The position numbers were made by a program, and so were the translations under genes. Below the pieces are notes generated by a model. That model did no database searches. It saw nothing but the letters and a program-made list of their open reading frames with translations, and was not told the DNA's origin. Source: Synechococcus sp. SynAce01 (GTDB lineage Bacteria; Cyanobacteriota; Cyanobacteriia; PCC-6307; Cyanobiaceae). Taken from it: a stretch of DNA of 64,000 nt. Below are positions 4,636-13,612 of this stretch, piece after piece. The stretch is from contig NZ_CP018091.1 of assembly GCF_001885215.1 (NCBI RefSeq), positions 2,108,001-2,172,000 on the forward strand, written 5' to 3'. Numbering within the stretch: position 1 is the stretch's first letter; every line of letters begins with the position of its first letter.

Positions 4636-4640
4636 CACTG

Positions 4641-4704
4641 CCTCAGCGGTATTGGACTGAATGGAGAGTGCAGCGAAAGAACTCGCCTTCGCTGTCGAAG
4701 GCGG
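4641..4704 (-). pseudogene. leftover 3' end of a DUF6544-like gene (copy of 7711-7774)
   Basis: These 64 bases match 7711-7774 at all but one position. At 7711 the same sequence encodes the last residues of the DUF6544-like protein, ending in LHSVQYR and TGA. Here the copy keeps the reading frame (one Glu to Asp change) and the stop codon, but the sequence upstream of it no longer aligns, so only the C-terminal tail of a related gene survives. It sits directly in front of the membrane-protein gene at 4635. Confidence 0.75.
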
Positions 4705-7657: not shown

Positions 7658-7710
7658 AAGCGCACTCCTATCCCAGGCGTACCCATGTTCGCCCCATAGG
7701 AGTGACGCTT
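7658..7710 (-). terminator. bulged hairpin directly after the DUF6544-like gene
   Basis: Minus-strand arms AAGCGTCACTCCTAT (7710-7696) and ATAGGAGTGCGCTT (7671-7658) pair over 14 bp with a single unpaired T and a 24-nt loop. The hairpin begins 2 nt after the stop codon at 7713. It could be a terminator. The one-base bulge in the upstream arm resembles the attC-like elements further along, but the outer RYYYAAC/GTTRRRY boxes are missing, so it may also be a worn cassette end. Confidence 0.5.
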
Positions 7711-7774
7711 CCTCAGCGGTATTGGACTGAATGGAGAGTGCAGCGAAAGAACTCGCCTTCGCTTTCGAAGGCGG
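7711..7774 (-). repeat. 64-bp direct repeat, second copy (3' end of the DUF6544-like gene)
   Basis: Matches 4641-4704 at 63 of 64 positions. Here it is the intact 3' end of the gene at 7713-8489; the other copy is an isolated fragment about 3 kb away. Confidence 0.9.
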
Positions 7775-8489
7775 GCGTACCGAACAGCCAGCCAACACGA
7801 AGACGGATGGGAATGGTCACGCCTGCAAAGGATTGTTCCTGCTCAGCCGCTCCGCCGAATGGGTGGTAGGCGAAAACACCCGTGTTCCTATCGCCCCAGC
7901 GCGAGAGGCAGCAACTCAAAAGCGCGCCTGCTGGGGAAACTTCAAGGTCGAGCTCGGCATGCTCACCATGGGCATCGAAAATCGCGACGGTATGGTCACT
8001 GCCCCGGTCGACCCAGCTGACCTCCTTATCAAGCAGAGCGGCCGGAAGCCAGATGGCCTCCGCATGGAGGCGGCCTGCGGCCGCGCGGGCGATCTCTGCG
8101 CCATCGGCCTTGATGACAGGAAAAAGCCCCAGCAATTTCCAGCGCATGGCCCCCACTCCATCCACCAGCCGATCAAATCCGGTCACGGGAAGCCCGTTCA
8201 CTTTGGCCGTTGCCGCCCATACGAAACCGCGGTCCCAGCGCAGCACCTGTTCAGCTTCAAACTTGCACCAACCTGGCTTGAGCTTGATCGTGCCGGTCAT
8301 GCTCAGCCTTGCGCAGGTGCTGCACTTCGCACCGGGGGCAAGGGCATGCTTCAGGTATCTCTGGGCGACAGGAGGTAGCGAGCTGACTGAATTCGGATCA
8401 AACACATGCTCGCTTGGTGCAGCACTGCTCCAGAGTTCCTCGAGCCTTCTGTCGTGTCGCATGACATGGCCTTTGATAGGACTTGGCAT
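7713..8489 (-). CDS. DUF6544-like protein
   Basis: The 258-residue soluble protein shows the pattern I remember for DUF6544. It has an N-terminal LPPVAQRYLKHAL segment, a beta-rich core with WCKFEAEQVLRWDRGFVWAA, then GFDRLVDGVGAMRWKLLGLFPV, and later EAIWLPAALL and EVSWVDRG. The function of the family is unknown. The ATG at 8489 lies only 7 nt past the attC-like element 8497-8583, as expected for the first codon of a cassette; an internal ATG at 8462 is an alternative start. A 64-bp duplicate of its 3' end survives at 4641-4704. It is followed by a strong hairpin. Its GC is somewhat higher than the other cassette ORFs, so it may be host-derived. Confidence 0.7.
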   Translation of the reverse strand: MPSPIKGHVMRHDRRLEELWSSAAPSEHVFDPNSVSSLPPVAQRYLKHALAPGAKCSTCARLSMTGTIKLKPGWCKFEAEQVLRWDRGFVWAATAKVNGLPVTGFDRLVDGVGAMRWKLLGLFPVIKADGAEIARAAAGRLHAEAIWLPAALLDKEVSWVDRGSDHTVAIFDAHGEHAELDLEVSPAGALLSCCLSRWGDRNTGVFAYHPFGGAAEQEQSFAGVTIPIRLRVGWLFGTPAFESEGEFFRCTLHSVQYR

Positions 8490-8496
8490 TTAGTAC

Positions 8497-8583
8497 GGCT
8501 GACGCTCCAGATCAGAAGCGGGCAAGTGCTTTTGCTGATGAGGATCAGGCCCTAATCCCGCCTTCTGGATCTGGATGTTAGCC
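8497..8583 (-). repeat. attC-like recombination site A
   Basis: This is an 87-bp palindromic element. On the minus strand it starts with R'' GGCTAAC, then an arm containing AGATCCAGAAGGCGGG, a variable centre, the complementary arm CCCGCTTCTGATCT, and the R' box GTCAGCC. One extra C in the first arm leaves an unpaired base, the usual asymmetry of attC sites. It begins 3 nt after the stop of the ORF at 8587 and ends 7 nt before the start of the ORF at 8489. R' departs from GTTRRRY by one base. Confidence 0.75.
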
Positions 8584-8586
8584 AGC

Positions 8587-9153
8587 TCATGAGTCTGTGC
8601 CAATTCCAGGATTGAGCCATGTGGCTGGTGACACATAGAGTTTATCGACCTTGCTGAGAACCCTTTCACGAAGCTTTTCATTGGTATCCAAGCTACCAAT
8701 AAAGCTGACTCCGGCCTGCTTCGTCTCCGCGATTAAGGTATCCAACTGAACAACAATATACAGACCAGGGTGTCGGCGAGCTAGCTCATGTAATGGCGCG
8801 GAGTCTGCGTTTCCATAGTAGTAAAGAATATGTTTTGCCTCCCCCTTCTCGCTCATGGATGACTCGGCCGACCATGTGTGAAGTACAGCACATCGGGCCC
8901 CATAGAGATCGCACGCTTTACAATTCAGCCTCCCACGCGAAAGCATCCAGTCAGAAACCCAACGTTCAAATCTTGGGCGAACCCTACTTTCTGTTTCGTC
9001 TGCAGCTAGATAAGCCATGTTATCGATGAAGCCGTAAGTGAGCGTGAGAGCTGGTAGTACCCACTCGCTTTCCAGCGTCTTCTCCATTGCCCGCCAACTG
9101 TGGTCGACGGCACTGGCCAGGATTGTGAATCTCCAAATCTCCTCTTCGTCCAT
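8587..9153 (-). CDS. cassette protein of unknown function with an Rx4H (HEPN-like) motif
   Basis: This 188-residue soluble protein has no signal peptide. The central segment CDLYGARCAVLHTWSAES (81-98) is reminiscent of a family of small helical proteins I have seen in accessory DNA. Within it R87-x4-H92 fits the R-x4-6-H signature of HEPN ribonucleases, and the flanks are predicted helical by composition. HEPN proteins often serve as toxins or abortive-infection effectors, but no antitoxin partner is evident here. The ORF starts 11 nt after attC-like element 9165-9252 and ends 3 nt before element 8497-8583, so it fills its cassette. The HEPN assignment is inference from one motif. Confidence 0.7.
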   Translation of the reverse strand: MDEEEIWRFTILASAVDHSWRAMEKTLESEWVLPALTLTYGFIDNMAYLAADETESRVRPRFERWVSDWMLSRGRLNCKACDLYGARCAVLHTWSAESSMSEKGEAKHILYYYGNADSAPLHELARRHPGLYIVVQLDTLIAETKQAGVSFIGSLDTNEKLRERVLSKVDKLYVSPATWLNPGIGTDS

Positions 9154-9164
9154 GTCCTATGTCT

Positions 9165-9252
9165 GGCTAATACTGCCCCTGAGTGGCAGGCTAGGAGCCT
9201 AGGTTGCACAGCAAGATGGTTGGCGCCTGTCCACACAAGGGGCTTGTTATAC
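9165..9252 (-). repeat. attC-like recombination site E
   Basis: This is an 88-bp element. On the minus strand R'' is GTATAAC, the arms are AAGCCCCTTGTGTGGACAGG and CCTGCCACTCAGGGGC, and R' is ATTAGCC (expected GTTAGCC). The first arm carries the extra bases, as in the other sites. It stands between the secreted-protein ORF (stop at 9381) and the Rx4H ORF (start at 9153). Both outer boxes are imperfect, so it may be partly decayed. Confidence 0.6.
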
Positions 9253-9380
9253 GTCCCTTCATAGCGAGGAACTTCTTTGCAATGCCTTATTAAAAAAGCT
9301 TGATCAGACTCTTGTTCTCTGCGGCTGAATACATTGACAGGAGTGTCTGATCATAGACAGTCTTGGGAAAGAGAGCAGTC

Positions 9381-9701
9381 TCATCGTACTGGAAGCGGAT
9401 GATTCTTCTGAAACTCTGGATACAAATCGGAGCAGTTCTCTTTCAGGGCAAACACCGATTTATACTGCACAGTTGCAGTTTGCTCTGAGGGGTATGCTGA
9501 ATAGGCATCGCCTCCAAGTTGGTACGCTTGCCGATAAAGGCGACAAGCAGCCCGTCTGTCACCGTTAACCTCAAGTGCGTACTGTGCCTCACCTCTTACC
9601 AGCTCCTCTTGAGCGAGAAGTGAAGCAGCTTTTTCTAAAGGAATAGCCACTGCAGGCGCTGAAAACAGTAAAATAGTGATAGCAGCGAGCGTACGCGTCA
9701 T
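9381..9701 (-). CDS. small secreted protein, unknown function
   Basis: The 106-residue protein has a typical Sec signal peptide (MTRTLAAITILLFSAPAVA, cleavage after VA). The mature part, about 85 residues, is charged, with two Cys (CRLYRQAY and NCSDLYPEF) that could form a disulfide once exported. I recognise no domain. Its start is 60 nt beyond attC-like element 9762-9848. The element that closes its cassette, 9165-9252, lies about 130 nt after its stop, an unusually long 3' gap that may contain lost coding sequence. Confidence 0.65.
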   Translation of the reverse strand: MTRTLAAITILLFSAPAVAIPLEKAASLLAQEELVRGEAQYALEVNGDRRAACRLYRQAYQLGGDAYSAYPSEQTATVQYKSVFALKENCSDLYPEFQKNHPLPVR

Positions 9702-9761
9702 GGGTCTTCAGTGTGCAATAGATAGGATGCCTCGGTGGGCGGGTGTTGGTTAAGCCTGTGC

Positions 9762-9848
9762 GGATAACGCTCAAGATCAGCGGCGGGGAGGATTCTTGCA
9801 GCTTTAACAGCCTTCAGCGCTCCCGCCCGCTGGATCTTGATGTTAGAT
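9762..9848 (-). repeat. attC-like recombination site B
   Basis: This is an 87-bp element. On the minus strand it reads R'' ATCTAAC, then ATCAAGATCCAGCGG, a centre that includes GGGAG, then the complementary CTCCCCGCCGCTGATCTT and R' GTTATCC. The outer arms match element 12194-12279 exactly for 22 nt on one side and 19 nt on the other, while the centres differ. One extra C in the first arm gives the unpaired base typical of attC. It lies 64 nt after the small ORF at 9913 and 60 nt before the secreted-protein ORF. Confidence 0.82.
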
Positions 9849-9912
9849 GCCGAAACTTGAGCAATGGCACTAACCAAATCTGACGAAGACGTTAAAGTCA
9901 TCCCATGCCAGC

Positions 9913-10143
9913 TTAAGTGCACCACGAAAAATTGGCCTTGCCGCGACCGTTGGCCAAGGCCGACGCCAGCGAGGACATGAGTCTCAATCGGTGCTTCCAG
10001 GGTAAACCGGTATTTTTCGAGGTGCCCTTAAGAATACCTGCCTCAATCTCTCGGTCAATTGACTTTTGAATCTTCTTTTCTGGACTCTGATCGTGGAAAA
10101 GATAATAGACAAAGTCAAAGACATCGCACAGAGTATGAATCAT
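9913..10143 (-). CDS. small cassette ORF, unknown, possibly truncated
   Basis: The 76-residue frame starts at the ATG at 10143. The first 40 residues (MIHTLCDVFDFVYYLF, then a charged EKKIQKSIDREIEAG helix) look protein-like. The C-terminal part, WKHRLRLMSSLASALANGRGK, looks less natural, so the frame may have been shifted. It has the right strand and position for a cassette gene: element 9762-9848 follows its stop by 64 nt. No family recognised. Confidence 0.4.
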   Translation of the reverse strand: MIHTLCDVFDFVYYLFHDQSPEKKIQKSIDREIEAGILKGTSKNTGLPWKHRLRLMSSLASALANGRGKANFSWCT

Positions 10144-10454
10144 TGACTGGCCAATTCCGCGTTTAATGCTTGACCCATTCGGGCTCTAAGCGTATTGGAT
10201 TGCGACGAGATAAATATCCGTGATTATGAAATCAGGATAGTGACATTAATGCAGAACAGCATAGGCTGTGAGGCCCTCCCTCAAGCTTCAACATCTATCG
10301 GCCCCCACCGCCGGCACTGGAGCACACCCGGCCATGGTGAGTGGCTTCCACCCCGAGGATGCTAGCTATGCCGTTTAGGGCTGATTTGAAAAAACAAGTT
10401 CTCATGATTGGTCTTGGGCGCGCAATTCTTGACAATAACAACCATAAGAAGTGA
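10144..10454. other. noncoding stretch inside the cassette region
   Basis: About 310 bp without a plausible gene on either strand. It has local GC-rich inverted segments (around 10300-10350) inside AT-rich sequence. It may include the promoter of the small ORF at 10143 or the remains of a degraded cassette. Confidence 0.45.
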
Positions 10455-10541
10455 TTACATCAGCGCAGCCAAAAGCTACATCTCTCAGTGAAACAATTAA
10501 CACATGAAGCAAGCCAATGCGGTGGCACTAGTGAGTTAGAT
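10455..10541 (-). repeat. possible decayed attC-like site F
   Basis: On the minus strand a perfect R'' box ATCTAAC (10541-10535), identical to those of sites B and C, starts 3 nt after the stop codon of the ORF at 10545, just as in site A. A matching second half is poor: an arm containing GGCTGCGCTGAT, then GTAATC near 10455, gives the right overall length, but the inner arms pair badly. The left boundary is a guess. Confidence 0.35.
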
Positions 10542-10544
10542 GAT

Positions 10545-11993
10545 CTATTTTGTATCCACTCTAATGCCATCCTTATCCCAGTTTTCAAATGCCCCTAGAT
10601 AAGGGGGATTGTGGCACCAGTCCATAACGTCACGCCTGCCATTTTGAATATAGGTGCCAGCTTCCTCATTCATTTTTTTTGTAATTTCTCTAGCCTTGTG
10701 CGACTCCTCGATCTTAAATCTTGCCAAAAGGGCAGCATCGTGGGCTGTTCTTTTGGCTTTTTTAATTTTTTCTTCGAGGTTGGCTGTTGAGCACCAATTG
10801 GCTAGATAGGCATCTTTATCTCTGGAATACAATAAGTAAATGGTGTATTTGTCTGGTCTTTCTAATGACTGTGCAGGCCTATGAGTATCTTCTTGAAACT
10901 TATTTTCTACTTTTTCGGGAGCAGTAAAGTAGGGCTTGCCAGATGGTCTAACCTTGATCCATTCATGAATTCCAGCGTATCTCCCCGTAATTCCATGGTA
11001 CTTGTAATTCTTATATTTCTCAAAAACTTCTTGCTCTTTGTCAAATGCTTTTTGTCTTGACGTAAATACTGCGGTTCCCACAAGTTTAACATCAGGAACA
11101 CTCTCTCTAATTGCCTTGATCCTATCTCCGAGTTTTTCAGGCTCTCTTACTCCAACCTTGTACGCACTGTGCTGGTCGGAATACAGTAGGTAAAGCACAT
11201 GGCCGCTTGGCCCACATCCTGTCAGGCGCTGATACATCCCTGGCCCATCAAGCTCAGCTATTCCCGTATTGAATGTTGGGTGTCTCGATGTATTGCTACG
11301 CCTGGTAGTGTTACCACCCTTCAAGTTCGGGATAGGCAAGACCGGGTCAGCTCCATTCCACGCTTGTTTTTCAGGGGAAGGAATTGGGTTGCTGGACTCG
11401 GCAAGGGGCTGGGCAGCAATGGGGACCGCTGGGACGGCCATGGTTGCCGGATTGGCCTCCTCCAGAACAAGCTGGCGGGGGCTCCCCAGGGTCGTGGCCA
11501 CCGCCTTCTCCAGCAGGGGAAGACGGCTCTGCACCATCGCCATCCAGGTGGTCGCCACCCGCACCACGGCCCGTTGACCATCCAGCCGCACCAGCTCGGC
11601 CTGCTGGGAGAGCAACATGCGTGCTGAAGGCAGCTCCAGGGCCGCCAGCATCTGTTGCCAGAGCTCGCTCAGCGGGATCTCACCCTTCGCCAGAGAAGTG
11701 GTTGAAAGGGTCGGGACTGGCAGGTGTTCCTGCTCGACCTGTGTCACCGGTGCCGCTGTCACAGATGCAACTGGTGCAGGTGTTGGACAAGGGCTAGGTA
11801 CAGGTGTTGGCCTAGATGCATGTGCAGGTATTGACCTTTGTGCAGGATTGAATACTTCTTTGGCTAATGTACTTCGATTAACTTTGTCTGCGATCTCTTT
11901 CGCCACTGGGGCGTGTGATCTTTGTGACCGCGACAATTTTCGAAGCAAATAATATATGACTACAGCAATTAGAATACTCAGCAGTAATTCCAT
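10545..11993 (-). CDS. chimeric membrane-anchored protein: DnaX-like segment plus GIY-YIG (T5orf172-type) domains
   Basis: The 482-residue protein has an N-terminal membrane helix (2-18), then a Pro/Thr-rich linker (about 55-100). Residues 105-180 resemble the C-terminal region of cyanobacterial DNA polymerase III tau (DnaX), including LELPSARMLLSQQAELVRL and WMAMVQSRLPLLEKAV. A second linker leads to a GIY-YIG domain of T5orf172/MUG113 type at 264-348 (VLYLLYSDQHSAYKVGV, later RYAGIHEWIKV). A second, weaker repeat of the same fold starts at 383 (YTIYLLYSRDKDAYLANW). The DnaX-like part is GC-rich like the host genome, while the rest is AT-rich, so the gene looks assembled. A possible attC site follows the stop by 3 nt. 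Confidence 0.75.
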   Translation of the reverse strand: MELLLSILIAVVIYYLLRKLSRSQRSHAPVAKEIADKVNRSTLAKEVFNPAQRSIPAHASRPTPVPSPCPTPAPVASVTAAPVTQVEQEHLPVPTLSTTSLAKGEIPLSELWQQMLAALELPSARMLLSQQAELVRLDGQRAVVRVATTWMAMVQSRLPLLEKAVATTLGSPRQLVLEEANPATMAVPAVPIAAQPLAESSNPIPSPEKQAWNGADPVLPIPNLKGGNTTRRSNTSRHPTFNTGIAELDGPGMYQRLTGCGPSGHVLYLLYSDQHSAYKVGVREPEKLGDRIKAIRESVPDVKLVGTAVFTSRQKAFDKEQEVFEKYKNYKYHGITGRYAGIHEWIKVRPSGKPYFTAPEKVENKFQEDTHRPAQSLERPDKYTIYLLYSRDKDAYLANWCSTANLEEKIKKAKRTAHDAALLARFKIEESHKAREITKKMNEEAGTYIQNGRRDVMDWCHNPPYLGAFENWDKDGIRVDTK

Positions 11994-12193
11994 GACATTA
12001 GAAAACTAATTTTATGCTATTAATGCTGGCTGAAGTCGCTTTCGTTTCACTCAAGTGCTTCTTTTGATTGCGACCTTCCGTCTTTCTCTTCATGTCAGCT
12101 AGTTGATCTGATCGTGATTATACATCCCATTCACGCCGTGGCTGCCAGGGCAGCACCTCTACGTTCCCGCCTGCTCAGGAAGCTCACTCGTGC

Positions 12194-12279
12194 ATCTAAC
12201 GCTCAAGATCAGCGGGGGGTAGTGACTTTTGCGGCATCAGCTCCTCCTAGCCCCCCTCCGCTGGATCTTGATGTTAGAT
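12194..12279 (-). repeat. attC-like recombination site C (best example)
   Basis: This is an 86-bp element whose outer boxes fit the consensus exactly: minus-strand R'' ATCTAAC and R' GTTAGAT. The inner arms AAGATCCAGCGG and CCGCTGATCTT pair with one unpaired C, and the stem continues through a G6/C6 stretch to a variable centre. Its outer arms are identical to those of site B. It begins 11 nt after the stop of the JAB-domain ORF (12291). About 200 nt without a gene separate it from the start of the next ORF at 11993. Confidence 0.85.
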
Positions 12280-12290
12280 GTCCCTCTGCG

Positions 12291-13088
12291 TTATAACTCT
12301 AGAGAAAGTTGACCAGACGGATGGGCTTCGCATTCGTTTGAAGCATCAAATTCATGACTCATCCAATATTTGCCATTCGCTGCATACTCAAGTAGCTTCC
12401 ACTCTTGATGAGGATTCCAGAAGATTATCAGGCTTTTGAGTTTGTTTGACTGAGCCCCAAGAAGGTTCTGAATCATTCCTGAAGTTCTTATGTCTGTCAA
12501 TGATGGTTTAGTAGACCCATTATGAACTGGATGATTGTGATATTGACGGAGCTCGGTGCATCTTAGCTTGCTCAAGTAAAAACTCCATTTCTTAGGATTA
12601 TCGGATGCAGAGCATTTATACGGCGAGCCAATCGAGGCCGTTATCCTGACTGCAATTCCATTACGCATGAATGCGGCAACAAATACTTCCCGTTTTTCGT
12701 GAAACATTCCGACTGCAAGCGCTTCTTCAAGATCTTTCTGACTTCGGCCTTGCAAGGAATATGCTTTCTTAAACGTCTCGCCCTTTTCCCTTGCGTCATA
12801 TTTTTGAAAAACATGGTCAATATTTCTCCGAAGACGAGAAATCTCGCTACATATCTTAGATCTCTTTTTATTTCGTTTTTGCTGAGGCTCCCAAGCATTG
12901 TTAAATATCCAACTAATTGCAGGCGCTAGCAACATACAGGCAACCAAGTAGATAGCCCAGCTCATTACTTGGCTCAATACAAATAGTAGCAGGCAAAAAT
13001 AGACAAGCGCAAACAGCCTGAAACTGGCACTAGAGGATCCTCGATCTATCTCCTCTAATTCAAGGTGTAAGGTTTCTAGCCTTGTCAC
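12291..13088 (-). CDS. membrane-anchored JAB/JAMM-motif protein
   Basis: The 265-residue protein starts at a GTG preceded by AAGGAG at 4-nt spacing. Two hydrophobic helices (about 24-42 and 44-63) form a hairpin anchor, followed by a basic, coiled-coil-like segment (70-125). The C-terminal domain has REVFVAAF (E134), then YHNHP (H184, H186) and PSLTD (S196, D199). This is the E...HxH...SxxD metal site of JAB/MPN+ isopeptidases, with a slightly longer gap than usual between the His pair and Ser. Such domains cleave ubiquitin-like conjugates in some bacterial defence systems. No E1, E2 or ubiquitin-like partner lies nearby. Cassette gene between sites D and C. Confidence 0.72.
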   Translation of the reverse strand: MTRLETLHLELEEIDRGSSSASFRLFALVYFCLLLFVLSQVMSWAIYLVACMLLAPAISWIFNNAWEPQQKRNKKRSKICSEISRLRRNIDHVFQKYDAREKGETFKKAYSLQGRSQKDLEEALAVGMFHEKREVFVAAFMRNGIAVRITASIGSPYKCSASDNPKKWSFYLSKLRCTELRQYHNHPVHNGSTKPSLTDIRTSGMIQNLLGAQSNKLKSLIIFWNPHQEWKLLEYAANGKYWMSHEFDASNECEAHPSGQLSLEL

Positions 13089-13165
13089 CCTGCTCCTTAA
13101 CTTCGGAAACGCTAGCAGTGGAACGGTCTGCCCCTATCCCTGCTTAAACTTGTTTCTGTTGGTGC

Positions 13166-13251
13166 ATCTAATGACGGAGCTGAGCCGCACCGCCGTTCTA
13201 CCGAACGACGTTCGGCTAGCAGACGGTGTCGGCTCCAGCGAAGTGTTGCTT
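13166..13251 (-). repeat. attC-like recombination site D (diverged)
   Basis: This is an 86-bp element. On the minus strand the arms GCTGGAGCCGACACCG and CGGTGCGGCTCAGC pair with extra bases on the first side only. R' is ATTAGAT (expected GTTAGAT), followed by GCACC like the sequence after site C. R'' (AAGCAAC) is imperfect. The centre holds a perfect 7-bp palindrome CCGAACG-A-CGTTCGG. It lies 47 nt after the end of the broken ORF and 77 nt before the JAB gene. Confidence 0.6.
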
Positions 13252-13298
13252 ATGCCGCGCAAGTATTCTACGCACTTAGAACAACCGTAGAAACGCGG

Positions 13299-13612
13299 TC
13301 AAAGCAACAGTATTTCGGCGGGTCCGGTATCCACCCACTGTCCCGGCGGTATGTCCGCATAAAATGCAACCGGGCTTGTTGCTCCTGGGCTGAGAACCTT
13401 TCCAGCATAAGGCCGTTGTCGCAATTGGCCAATAGGCGAGGGGAACTTAGGCGGGTCCGAGAACCACATGTTCCAAGCATTACGGATGGTCTGCTGCGCT
13501 CGTTAACGGCCCAACCGTAGGTGCTCCCTTTTGTTACATGCAATTCGATGATTGTGGCTTTGCCCTGCAAGTCCCGAATGCTGCCGTTGTTTGCCTTCCC
13601 TCCAGACTAAGG
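13299..13612 (-). pseudogene. frameshifted remnant of an unrecognised cassette ORF
   Basis: Two frames on the minus strand together read as one plausible protein. The first (from about 13612, no start codon) ends near KGSTYGWAVNE. The second continues from about 13503 with QQTIRNAWNMWFSDPPKF, then SPGATSPVAFYADIPPGQW, and stops at the TGA at 13299. The join needs one frameshift around 13490-13503, and the N-terminus is missing. I do not recognise the family. Its end lies 47 nt before attC-like site D, the spacing expected of a cassette ORF. Confidence 0.5.

What the first reader, a model, noticed from the sequence alone, without database searches (positions are those of the whole stretch)
7658..13612. 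Integron-type cassette array without integrase in a picocyanobacterial chromosome
Five palindromic elements of 86-88 bp (8497, 9165, 9762, 12194, 13166) separate minus-strand ORFs. On the minus strand each follows a stop codon and precedes the next start. Outer boxes fit or nearly fit RYYYAAC and GTTRRRY, inner arms are complementary, and the extra unpaired base is always in the same (first) arm, as the polarity of attC requires. The centres differ. Constant length, fixed orientation and ORF spacing argue against chance hairpins or terminators. I do not recall such an array being described for this lineage.
Basis: partly seen in the sequence, partly recalled or inferred. Interest (0 to 1): 0.93.

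Follow-up and report, generated by a model that had tools for sequence, protein, structure and literature searches.

The report
Integrase-less integron array headed by attI
A small cyanobacterium carries a real integron gene-cassette array here, with its docking site still in place but its integrase gene gone; it is one of about eleven such docking sites in the genome, which suggests these bacteria run many cassette docks with one or few integrases.

Summary
All five elements are attC sites. A covariance model trained only on attCs from other loci that carry intI finds exactly these five in 64 kb: four at E<=3e-14, the fifth at 0.0015, nothing else at E<=10. Relatives show cassette-unit movement with base-exact boundaries at the G|TT crossover.

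'Without integrase' is true only locally. The genome has a distant intI, in frame but lacking 22 residues of the IntI-specific helix, plus broken copies. 25 attCs lie in seven clusters, all headed by attI-like sites. 'Not described for this lineage' is wrong: cyanobacterial integrons are known.

So the array is a new member of a known kind (CALIN / chromosomal integron). What looks new is the architecture. Seven complete Cyanobiaceae genomes hold about 57 attI-like sites, at least 35 with no intI remnant; 43 of 58 hits have a same-strand attC within 6 kb. Thirty integron-free relatives gave one hit. At one orphan attI shared by two species, content diverges exactly at the crossover. This fits dispersed attI docks served in trans. 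No recombination was assayed.

The parts
13484..13503 (-). fossil of the extreme 3' end of intI (last ~20 bp including the former stop region); the rest of intI is gone
   Evidence: nhmmer profile of 44 intI-tail+attI sequences: single window hit 13502-13247(-), E=6e-29, starting 20 bp before the intI stop position; R3 model hit 13503-13306, positions 4-200. Further upstream similarity to the IntI C-terminus is only suggestive.
13306..13481 (-). attI site: distal repeat ATGTGGTTCTCGGACCCGCC, middle repeat TTATGCGGA, proximal repeat GGGTGGATACCGGACCCGCCGAAATACTG|TT; crossover between G13308 and T13307
   Evidence: 70% identical over 212 bp to the region downstream of intI in Synechococcus sp. 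BSA11S, continuous with the intI 3' end there; profile hit E=6e-29
13172..13307 (-). cassette a, 136 bp, no convincing ORF, ends in attC5
   Evidence: same block 81-87% identical next to attI in G131, G121, G207, G099, G048 and at own C1:53.9 kb; in G005 and at the G207 intI locus homology starts exactly at 13308, the crossover
13166..13250 (-). attC5 (weakest; R' core ATT)
   Evidence: R2 E=0.0015; R1 53.3 bits
12291..13088 (-). ORF of cassette b (265 aa): membrane segment plus RadC/JAB-like domain with HNHPVHNGSTKPSLTD motif
   Evidence: RadC matches below cut-off, Pfam E=0.03, NCBIfam E=0.005
12194..12279 (-). attC4 (canonical, R' GTTAGAT)
   Evidence: R2 E=2.6e-14; fold z=-4.6
10545..11993 (-). 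main ORF of cassette c (482 aa): membrane anchor, DnaX (pol III gamma/tau) domain fragment, GIY-YIG-like endonuclease region
   Evidence: NCBIfam PRK14948 E=1e-20 over residues 26-198; PHROG endonuclease E=1.7e-4 over 266-357; ~200 bp about 75-85% identical to a conserved locus in most relatives
9762..9848 (-). attC3 (canonical, R' GTTATCC)
   Evidence: R2 E=3.4e-16
9381..9701 (-). ORF of cassette d (106 aa), apparent signal peptide, no family
9165..9251 (-). attC2 (R' core ATT)
   Evidence: R2 E=3.9e-15
8503..9170 (-). cassette e as an exact unit, ORF 8587-9153 (188 aa, unknown)
   Evidence: 82% identical unit in G234 with both ends at the crossover base; PHROG 18591 E=8e-4, unknown function
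8497..8583 (-). attC1 (R' core GTC)
   Evidence: R2 E=9.2e-16
7713..8489 (-). terminal gene, DUF6544/DUF6920 family, no attC after it; conserved at the same place in sister genome G108 behind the 3' half of a different attC
   Evidence: Pfam E=1.7e-48; 94% identity to G108 from 7705 to 8506

Best explanation
Minus-strand 13503-7713 is a chromosomal integron cassette array: an attI site, then five attC sites ending five cassettes, then a conserved terminal gene. Its own intI is gone except for the last ~20 bp. The cassettes were laid down one at a time by an integron integrase that recombines the folded bottom strand of attC with attI at G|TT. This happened either before intI was lost here or in trans from an intI elsewhere in the genome. 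In this strain the array is probably frozen: the only in-frame IntI lacks 22 residues that include the IntI-specific alpha-I2 segment, and three of the five attC core triplets are mutated. Shown by sequence: attC, attI, loss of intI, exact cassette boundaries, cassette difference from relatives. Inferred: catalysis by IntI, order of events, present inactivity.
For: Independent covariance model finds exactly these five sites. A model built from the window's five sites finds intI-adjacent attCs in the main array (E 8e-12 to 2e-7) and in relatives. attI plus intI tail profile, one window hit, E=6e-29. Cassette e recurs in G234 with identity starting at TTAGCCAGACATAGG directly after attI ...AAATGCTG| and ending at ...GGAGCG|T. 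G048 shares the start of cassette c from the attC4 crossover. G108 shares the terminal gene up to the attC1 R' box, but carries the 3' half of a different attC type there. In G083 the genes on either side (window 4064 and 13733) are adjacent, an empty site. IntI elsewhere in the genome; 22-residue in-frame deletion against 89% identical Synechococcus CS-1329 IntI and intact sister G108 IntI. Deletion matches VchIntIA residues 195-217, which contain K209 and Y210, contacts to the second extrahelical base (PMC3053210); the domain is reported necessary for activity (Messier and Roy 2001, cited in PMC7784347).
Against: No recombination has been shown for any of these sites. attC5 is weak against the independent model (0.0015). 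Cassette c is unusually long (2.4 kb) and contains a chromosomal dnaX fragment, so part of it may have arrived another way. The intI fossil is only ~20 bp beyond doubt, so an array formed at a pre-existing orphan attI is not separated from loss of a local intI. One stray attI-like hit shows a low but non-zero background.
Confidence: 0.92

Rival explanations
1. Distributed docking. The array sits on an orphan attI, one of several discrete ~180-bp attI copies scattered over the chromosome. A single IntI encoded elsewhere inserts cassettes at all of them in trans, so intI may never have been needed locally for the cassettes now present.
For: 11 attI-like sites in this 2.75-Mb genome heading 7 of 7 attC clusters; 58 hits in seven complete genomes, 43 with a same-strand attC within 6 kb against ~0.65 expected at random. 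35 orphans examined have no intI: homology starts at profile position 104 or later (intI stop = 123) and never between 39 and 103. Their internal repeats co-vary within a site as in intI-linked attI (1 of 5000 permutations reaches the value). Orphan attI shared by G207 and G090 with ~93% identical flank carries different content starting exactly after the crossover TT. 30 integron-free relatives: one hit in all.
Against: The window copy retains ~20 bp of intI, which fits local loss. Five other sites keep 28-52 codons of intI. Orphan attI between G207 and G090 is ~80% identical against ~93% for the flank, so it is not conserved above its surroundings. No trans reaction has been assayed; the G090 side has no recognisable attC.
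Confidence: 0.45
2. Graveyard of whole integrons. Many complete integrons were acquired or duplicated and each lost intI, leaving attI plus cassettes as dead relics; nothing acts in trans.
For: Graded series in one genome: in-frame intI with a deletion, truncated and frameshifted intI, 28-52-codon intI tails, ~20 bp tail, none. intI pseudogenes are common in general (PMC2426708).
Against: Start points of orphan attI are bimodal, not spread over the intI tail. Content change at a shared orphan attI after species divergence. Repeat co-variation retained in orphans.
Confidence: 0.45
3. CALIN by off-target insertion: cassettes inserted by IntI at a non-attI genomic site.
For: Off-target insertion is one proposed origin of CALINs (PMC8618304); the intI is far away.
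Against: An attI site with its crossover lies at the head of the array.
Confidence: 0.03
4. Chance hairpins, terminators or a MITE-like repeat family.
For: Elements are palindromic and of constant length.
Against: Match an attC model trained elsewhere, fixed polarity, cassette-unit movement with exact ends, attI at the head. No Rfam match. Centres differ, unlike a MITE family.
Confidence: 0.01

Closest known systems
CALIN (cluster of attC sites lacking an integron-integrase; Cury et al. definition, as used in PMC8618304, PMC9024848, PMC12444791)
   Same: At least two attC sites, within 4 kb of each other, same orientation, no neighbouring intI; intI present elsewhere in the genome
   Different: An attI site heads the array. 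attI outside class 1 is poorly described and not detected by IntegronFinder (PMC9024848), so such arrays would be filed as plain CALINs.
Sedentary chromosomal integron, inverted-integrase layout (intI, attI and cassettes on one strand)
   Same: In this genome and relatives attI lies just downstream of the intI stop and the cassettes follow on the same strand; attCs of one genome are similar to each other
   Different: At the window locus intI is absent; the genome has about eleven attI-like sites rather than one
Integrons with inactivated intI and stable arrays in Xanthomonas (PMC12444791) and intI pseudogenes in general (PMC2426708)
   Same: Loss of intI with retention of cassettes; additional CALINs elsewhere in the genome
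   Different: Here the remaining in-frame IntI has lost part of the additional domain by an in-frame 22-residue deletion rather than a frameshift or stop; dispersed attI copies

Membership tests
Integron cassette array / CALIN | two or more attC sites, same orientation, under 4 kb apart | tested here: met
   Five sites, gaps 0.5-2.4 kb, all minus strand
Integron cassette array / CALIN | attC architecture: R''-L''-L'-R', two extrahelical bases on one arm of the bottom strand | tested here: met
   Folds and model alignments; outer box non-standard in elements 1, 2 and 5
Integron cassette array / CALIN | no intI next to the array | tested here: met
   tblastn with IntI finds none at the window locus; only the last ~20 bp of an intI
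Integron cassette array / CALIN | cassettes are mobile units bounded by the crossover point | tested here: met
   G234 unit exact at both ends, G048 and G108 exact or within 4 bases at one end
Complete integron | intI with the IntI additional domain adjacent to attI | tested here: not met
   attI present, intI absent at the locus; the nearest-to-intact IntI is at C1:183-184 kb and lacks 22 residues of the domain
Complete integron | attI recombination site | tested here: met
   Profile E=6e-29; crossover G|TT at 13308|13307
Complete integron | cassette promoter Pc | not tested
   Cyanobacterial Pc is not characterised; not scanned
Functional recombination | attC x attI recombination by IntI | not testable with these tools
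   Needs a recombination assay

The most novel reading that the evidence does not exclude
Picocyanobacteria of the family Cyanobiaceae run a many-attI integron: dispersed orphan attI sites, without intI, act as cassette docks served in trans by one or few IntI proteins, and the window array is one such dock.
Probability: 0.45. Interest if true: 0.75.

Novelty: new variant of a known kind. Interest (0 to 1): 0.52.

Why it matters
The array alone adds one member to a known class. The wider pattern matters more. If orphan attI sites are live docks, one genome can store and express cassettes at about ten separate places, which changes how cassette order and expression are understood. It also suggests that part of the arrays now called CALINs are attI-headed and simply unrecognised because attI is not searched for outside class 1. 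The attI and attC models made here make this directly testable in cultured Synechococcus and Cyanobium strains.

Tried and rejected
Rfam: no match in the window. tRNA-site island: no tRNA. Off-target CALIN: rejected because attI is present. Known defence cargo: no useful PADLOC, NCBIfam or PHROG family for most cassette ORFs. 'Genome lacks integrase': rejected. I first took the leading ORF 13268-13570 as a cassette gene; it overlaps attI and the intI fossil and is not a credible gene. Fold energies alone were not decisive for element 2. TIGR02249 as a presence test was too loose: all 14 control genomes ring below cut-off. The Cury 2016 paper was not held. I considered a recurrent loss of the IntI helix in this family as a finding, but the loci were picked by a score that favours such deletions, so no rate is claimed.
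Full report
What was checked. To avoid circularity I built a first covariance model (R1) from the five, used it to find attCs at loci that carry an intI gene in this genome and in relatives, and built a second model (R2) from 32 of those only. R2 on the whole 64-kb window returns exactly the five elements and nothing else at E<=10. Bottom-strand folds show two extrahelical bases, about five nucleotides apart, on one arm, as attC requires (PMC3053210).

Genome context. The window is C1:2108001-2172000 of a complete 2.75-Mb, single-contig genome. IntI relatives named in the search are Cyanobium, Synechococcus and Vulcanococcus, so I place it in the Cyanobiaceae; the genome itself is unnamed. It has an intI with a long open frame at C1:183-184 kb (TIGR02249 400.8 bits, cut-off 265), next to a photolyase-like gene and followed by attI, two copies of an IS91-like element and an array of attCs on the same strand. 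A second intI at 1244.8 kb is truncated and frameshifted. A third, more distant copy at 329 kb is interrupted. In total R2 finds 25 attCs in seven clusters.

The integrase is damaged. Against Synechococcus sp. CS-1329 (89% identical) and the sister genome G108, the in-frame IntI lacks exactly 22 residues, WGRVILPHALGRKYPNAAVEWG or equivalent, between two GW motifs. In VchIntIA this is residues 195-217, which hold K209 and Y210 of the alpha-I2 contact to the second extrahelical base (PMC3053210). The additional domain is reported as necessary (Messier and Roy 2001, as cited in PMC7784347; I did not read that paper itself). I infer that this strain has no active IntI. That is not shown.

The array has an attI. 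The sequence upstream of element 5 aligns with the region downstream of intI in relatives, continuous with the 3' end of intI itself in BSA11S. A profile from 44 intI tails plus downstream DNA gives one window hit, E=6e-29, starting 20 bp inside intI and running through the attI to beyond the crossover. So the locus is attI plus five attCs, with intI gone. Three attC cores carry changes at the G-TT triplet.

Cassettes move as units. Cassette e (9170-8503) occurs in G234 with homology starting at the base after the crossover, there directly behind an attI-like sequence, and stopping at the crossover of its own attC. The start of cassette c occurs in G048 from the attC4 crossover. The ORF-less first cassette occurs behind attI in several genera, and in G005 and at the G207 intI locus its homology starts exactly at the crossover. 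In the sister genome G108 the terminal DUF6544 gene is 94% identical up to the R' box of attC1, but behind it stands the 3' half of an attC of the other family, cut by an IS fragment. In G083 the two outer flanks are joined without any of this.

Dispersed attI sites. A sequence model of attI (R3) finds 11 sites in this genome and 2-10 in each of 14 relatives, against one hit in 30 relatives without attC or intI. In seven complete genomes 43 of 58 hits have an attC on the same strand within 6 kb downstream (about 0.65 expected for random placement) and 42 of 57 attC clusters have an attI at the head; in the window's genome it is 7 of 7. I inspected 35 sites with no recognisable intI. Their similarity starts around the former stop codon and never inside positions 39-103 of the intI tail, while sites with intI or intI fragments start at 38 or earlier. 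The distal and proximal repeats of a site match each other more than those of other sites, in orphans as in intI-linked attI. At one orphan attI shared by G207 and G090 with ~93% identical flank, content differs from the base after the crossover TT onward. This points to use in trans, but no reaction was assayed, and the orphan attI is less conserved than its flank.

Distribution. In 300 Cyanobiaceae genomes attC sites are found in 81 and intI (E<=1e-40) in 72. Comparing the two lists by hand, 65 genomes have both and 16 have attC only. Those with neither include the small-genome members.

What is known. Integrons in Cyanobacteria, and an intI in a Synechococcus, are in the literature (PMC8618304, PMC2426708, PMC9668308, PMC3108266, PMC3607928); a Cyanobacteria attC class exists (PMC12444791). 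I found no paper in the held library on multiple attI sites per genome, but most subscription papers are not held. IntegronFinder 2.0 states that integrons typically have one attI near the integrase and that attI outside class 1 is not detected (PMC9024848). Hence my split: the array is a new member of a known kind; the many-attI architecture looks like a new variant, and I score novelty on that.

Noticed in passing
L009:8050-9036(-) (genome C1:183-184 kb); also L041, L043, L103/L042, L048, L049: In-frame deletions of 13-31 residues in or beside the IntI additional domain, apparently independent, in several Cyanobiaceae IntI genes. The sampling favours such alleles, so no rate can be given.
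   Followed up: partly
window 11459-11666 within ORF 10545-11993(-): A cassette ORF carries a DnaX (pol III gamma/tau) domain fragment fused to a membrane anchor and a GIY-YIG-like nuclease region; about 75-85% DNA identity to a conserved locus in most relatives, presumably dnaX.
   Followed up: partly
window 4638-4704 and 7708-7774: 67 bp of the 3' end of the DUF6544 gene is repeated at 97% identity 3 kb away, next to a small membrane-protein ORF; both copies match the single G108 gene end.
   Followed up: no
L009:3211-7698: Two identical copies of an IS91-like element (tyrosine recombinase plus transposase) sit at the attI-proximal end of the main integron array; another copy of its recombinase lies in L012.
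   Followed up: no
window 13172-13307(-); L192, L193, L194, L195, L198, L199, L202: An ORF-less 136-bp cassette recurs in first or second position behind attI in several genera.
   Followed up: partly
window 7658-7700: An inverted repeat CACTCCTAT...ATAGGAGTG just after the terminal DUF6544 gene; probably a terminator-like hairpin, not an attC (neither model matches it).
   Followed up: no
L245, L246, L247 (G121, G099, G139): Three species have attI sites in the same place beside an 84-89% identical flank, yet the attI sequences are only about 70% identical or do not align by blastn.
   Followed up: partly
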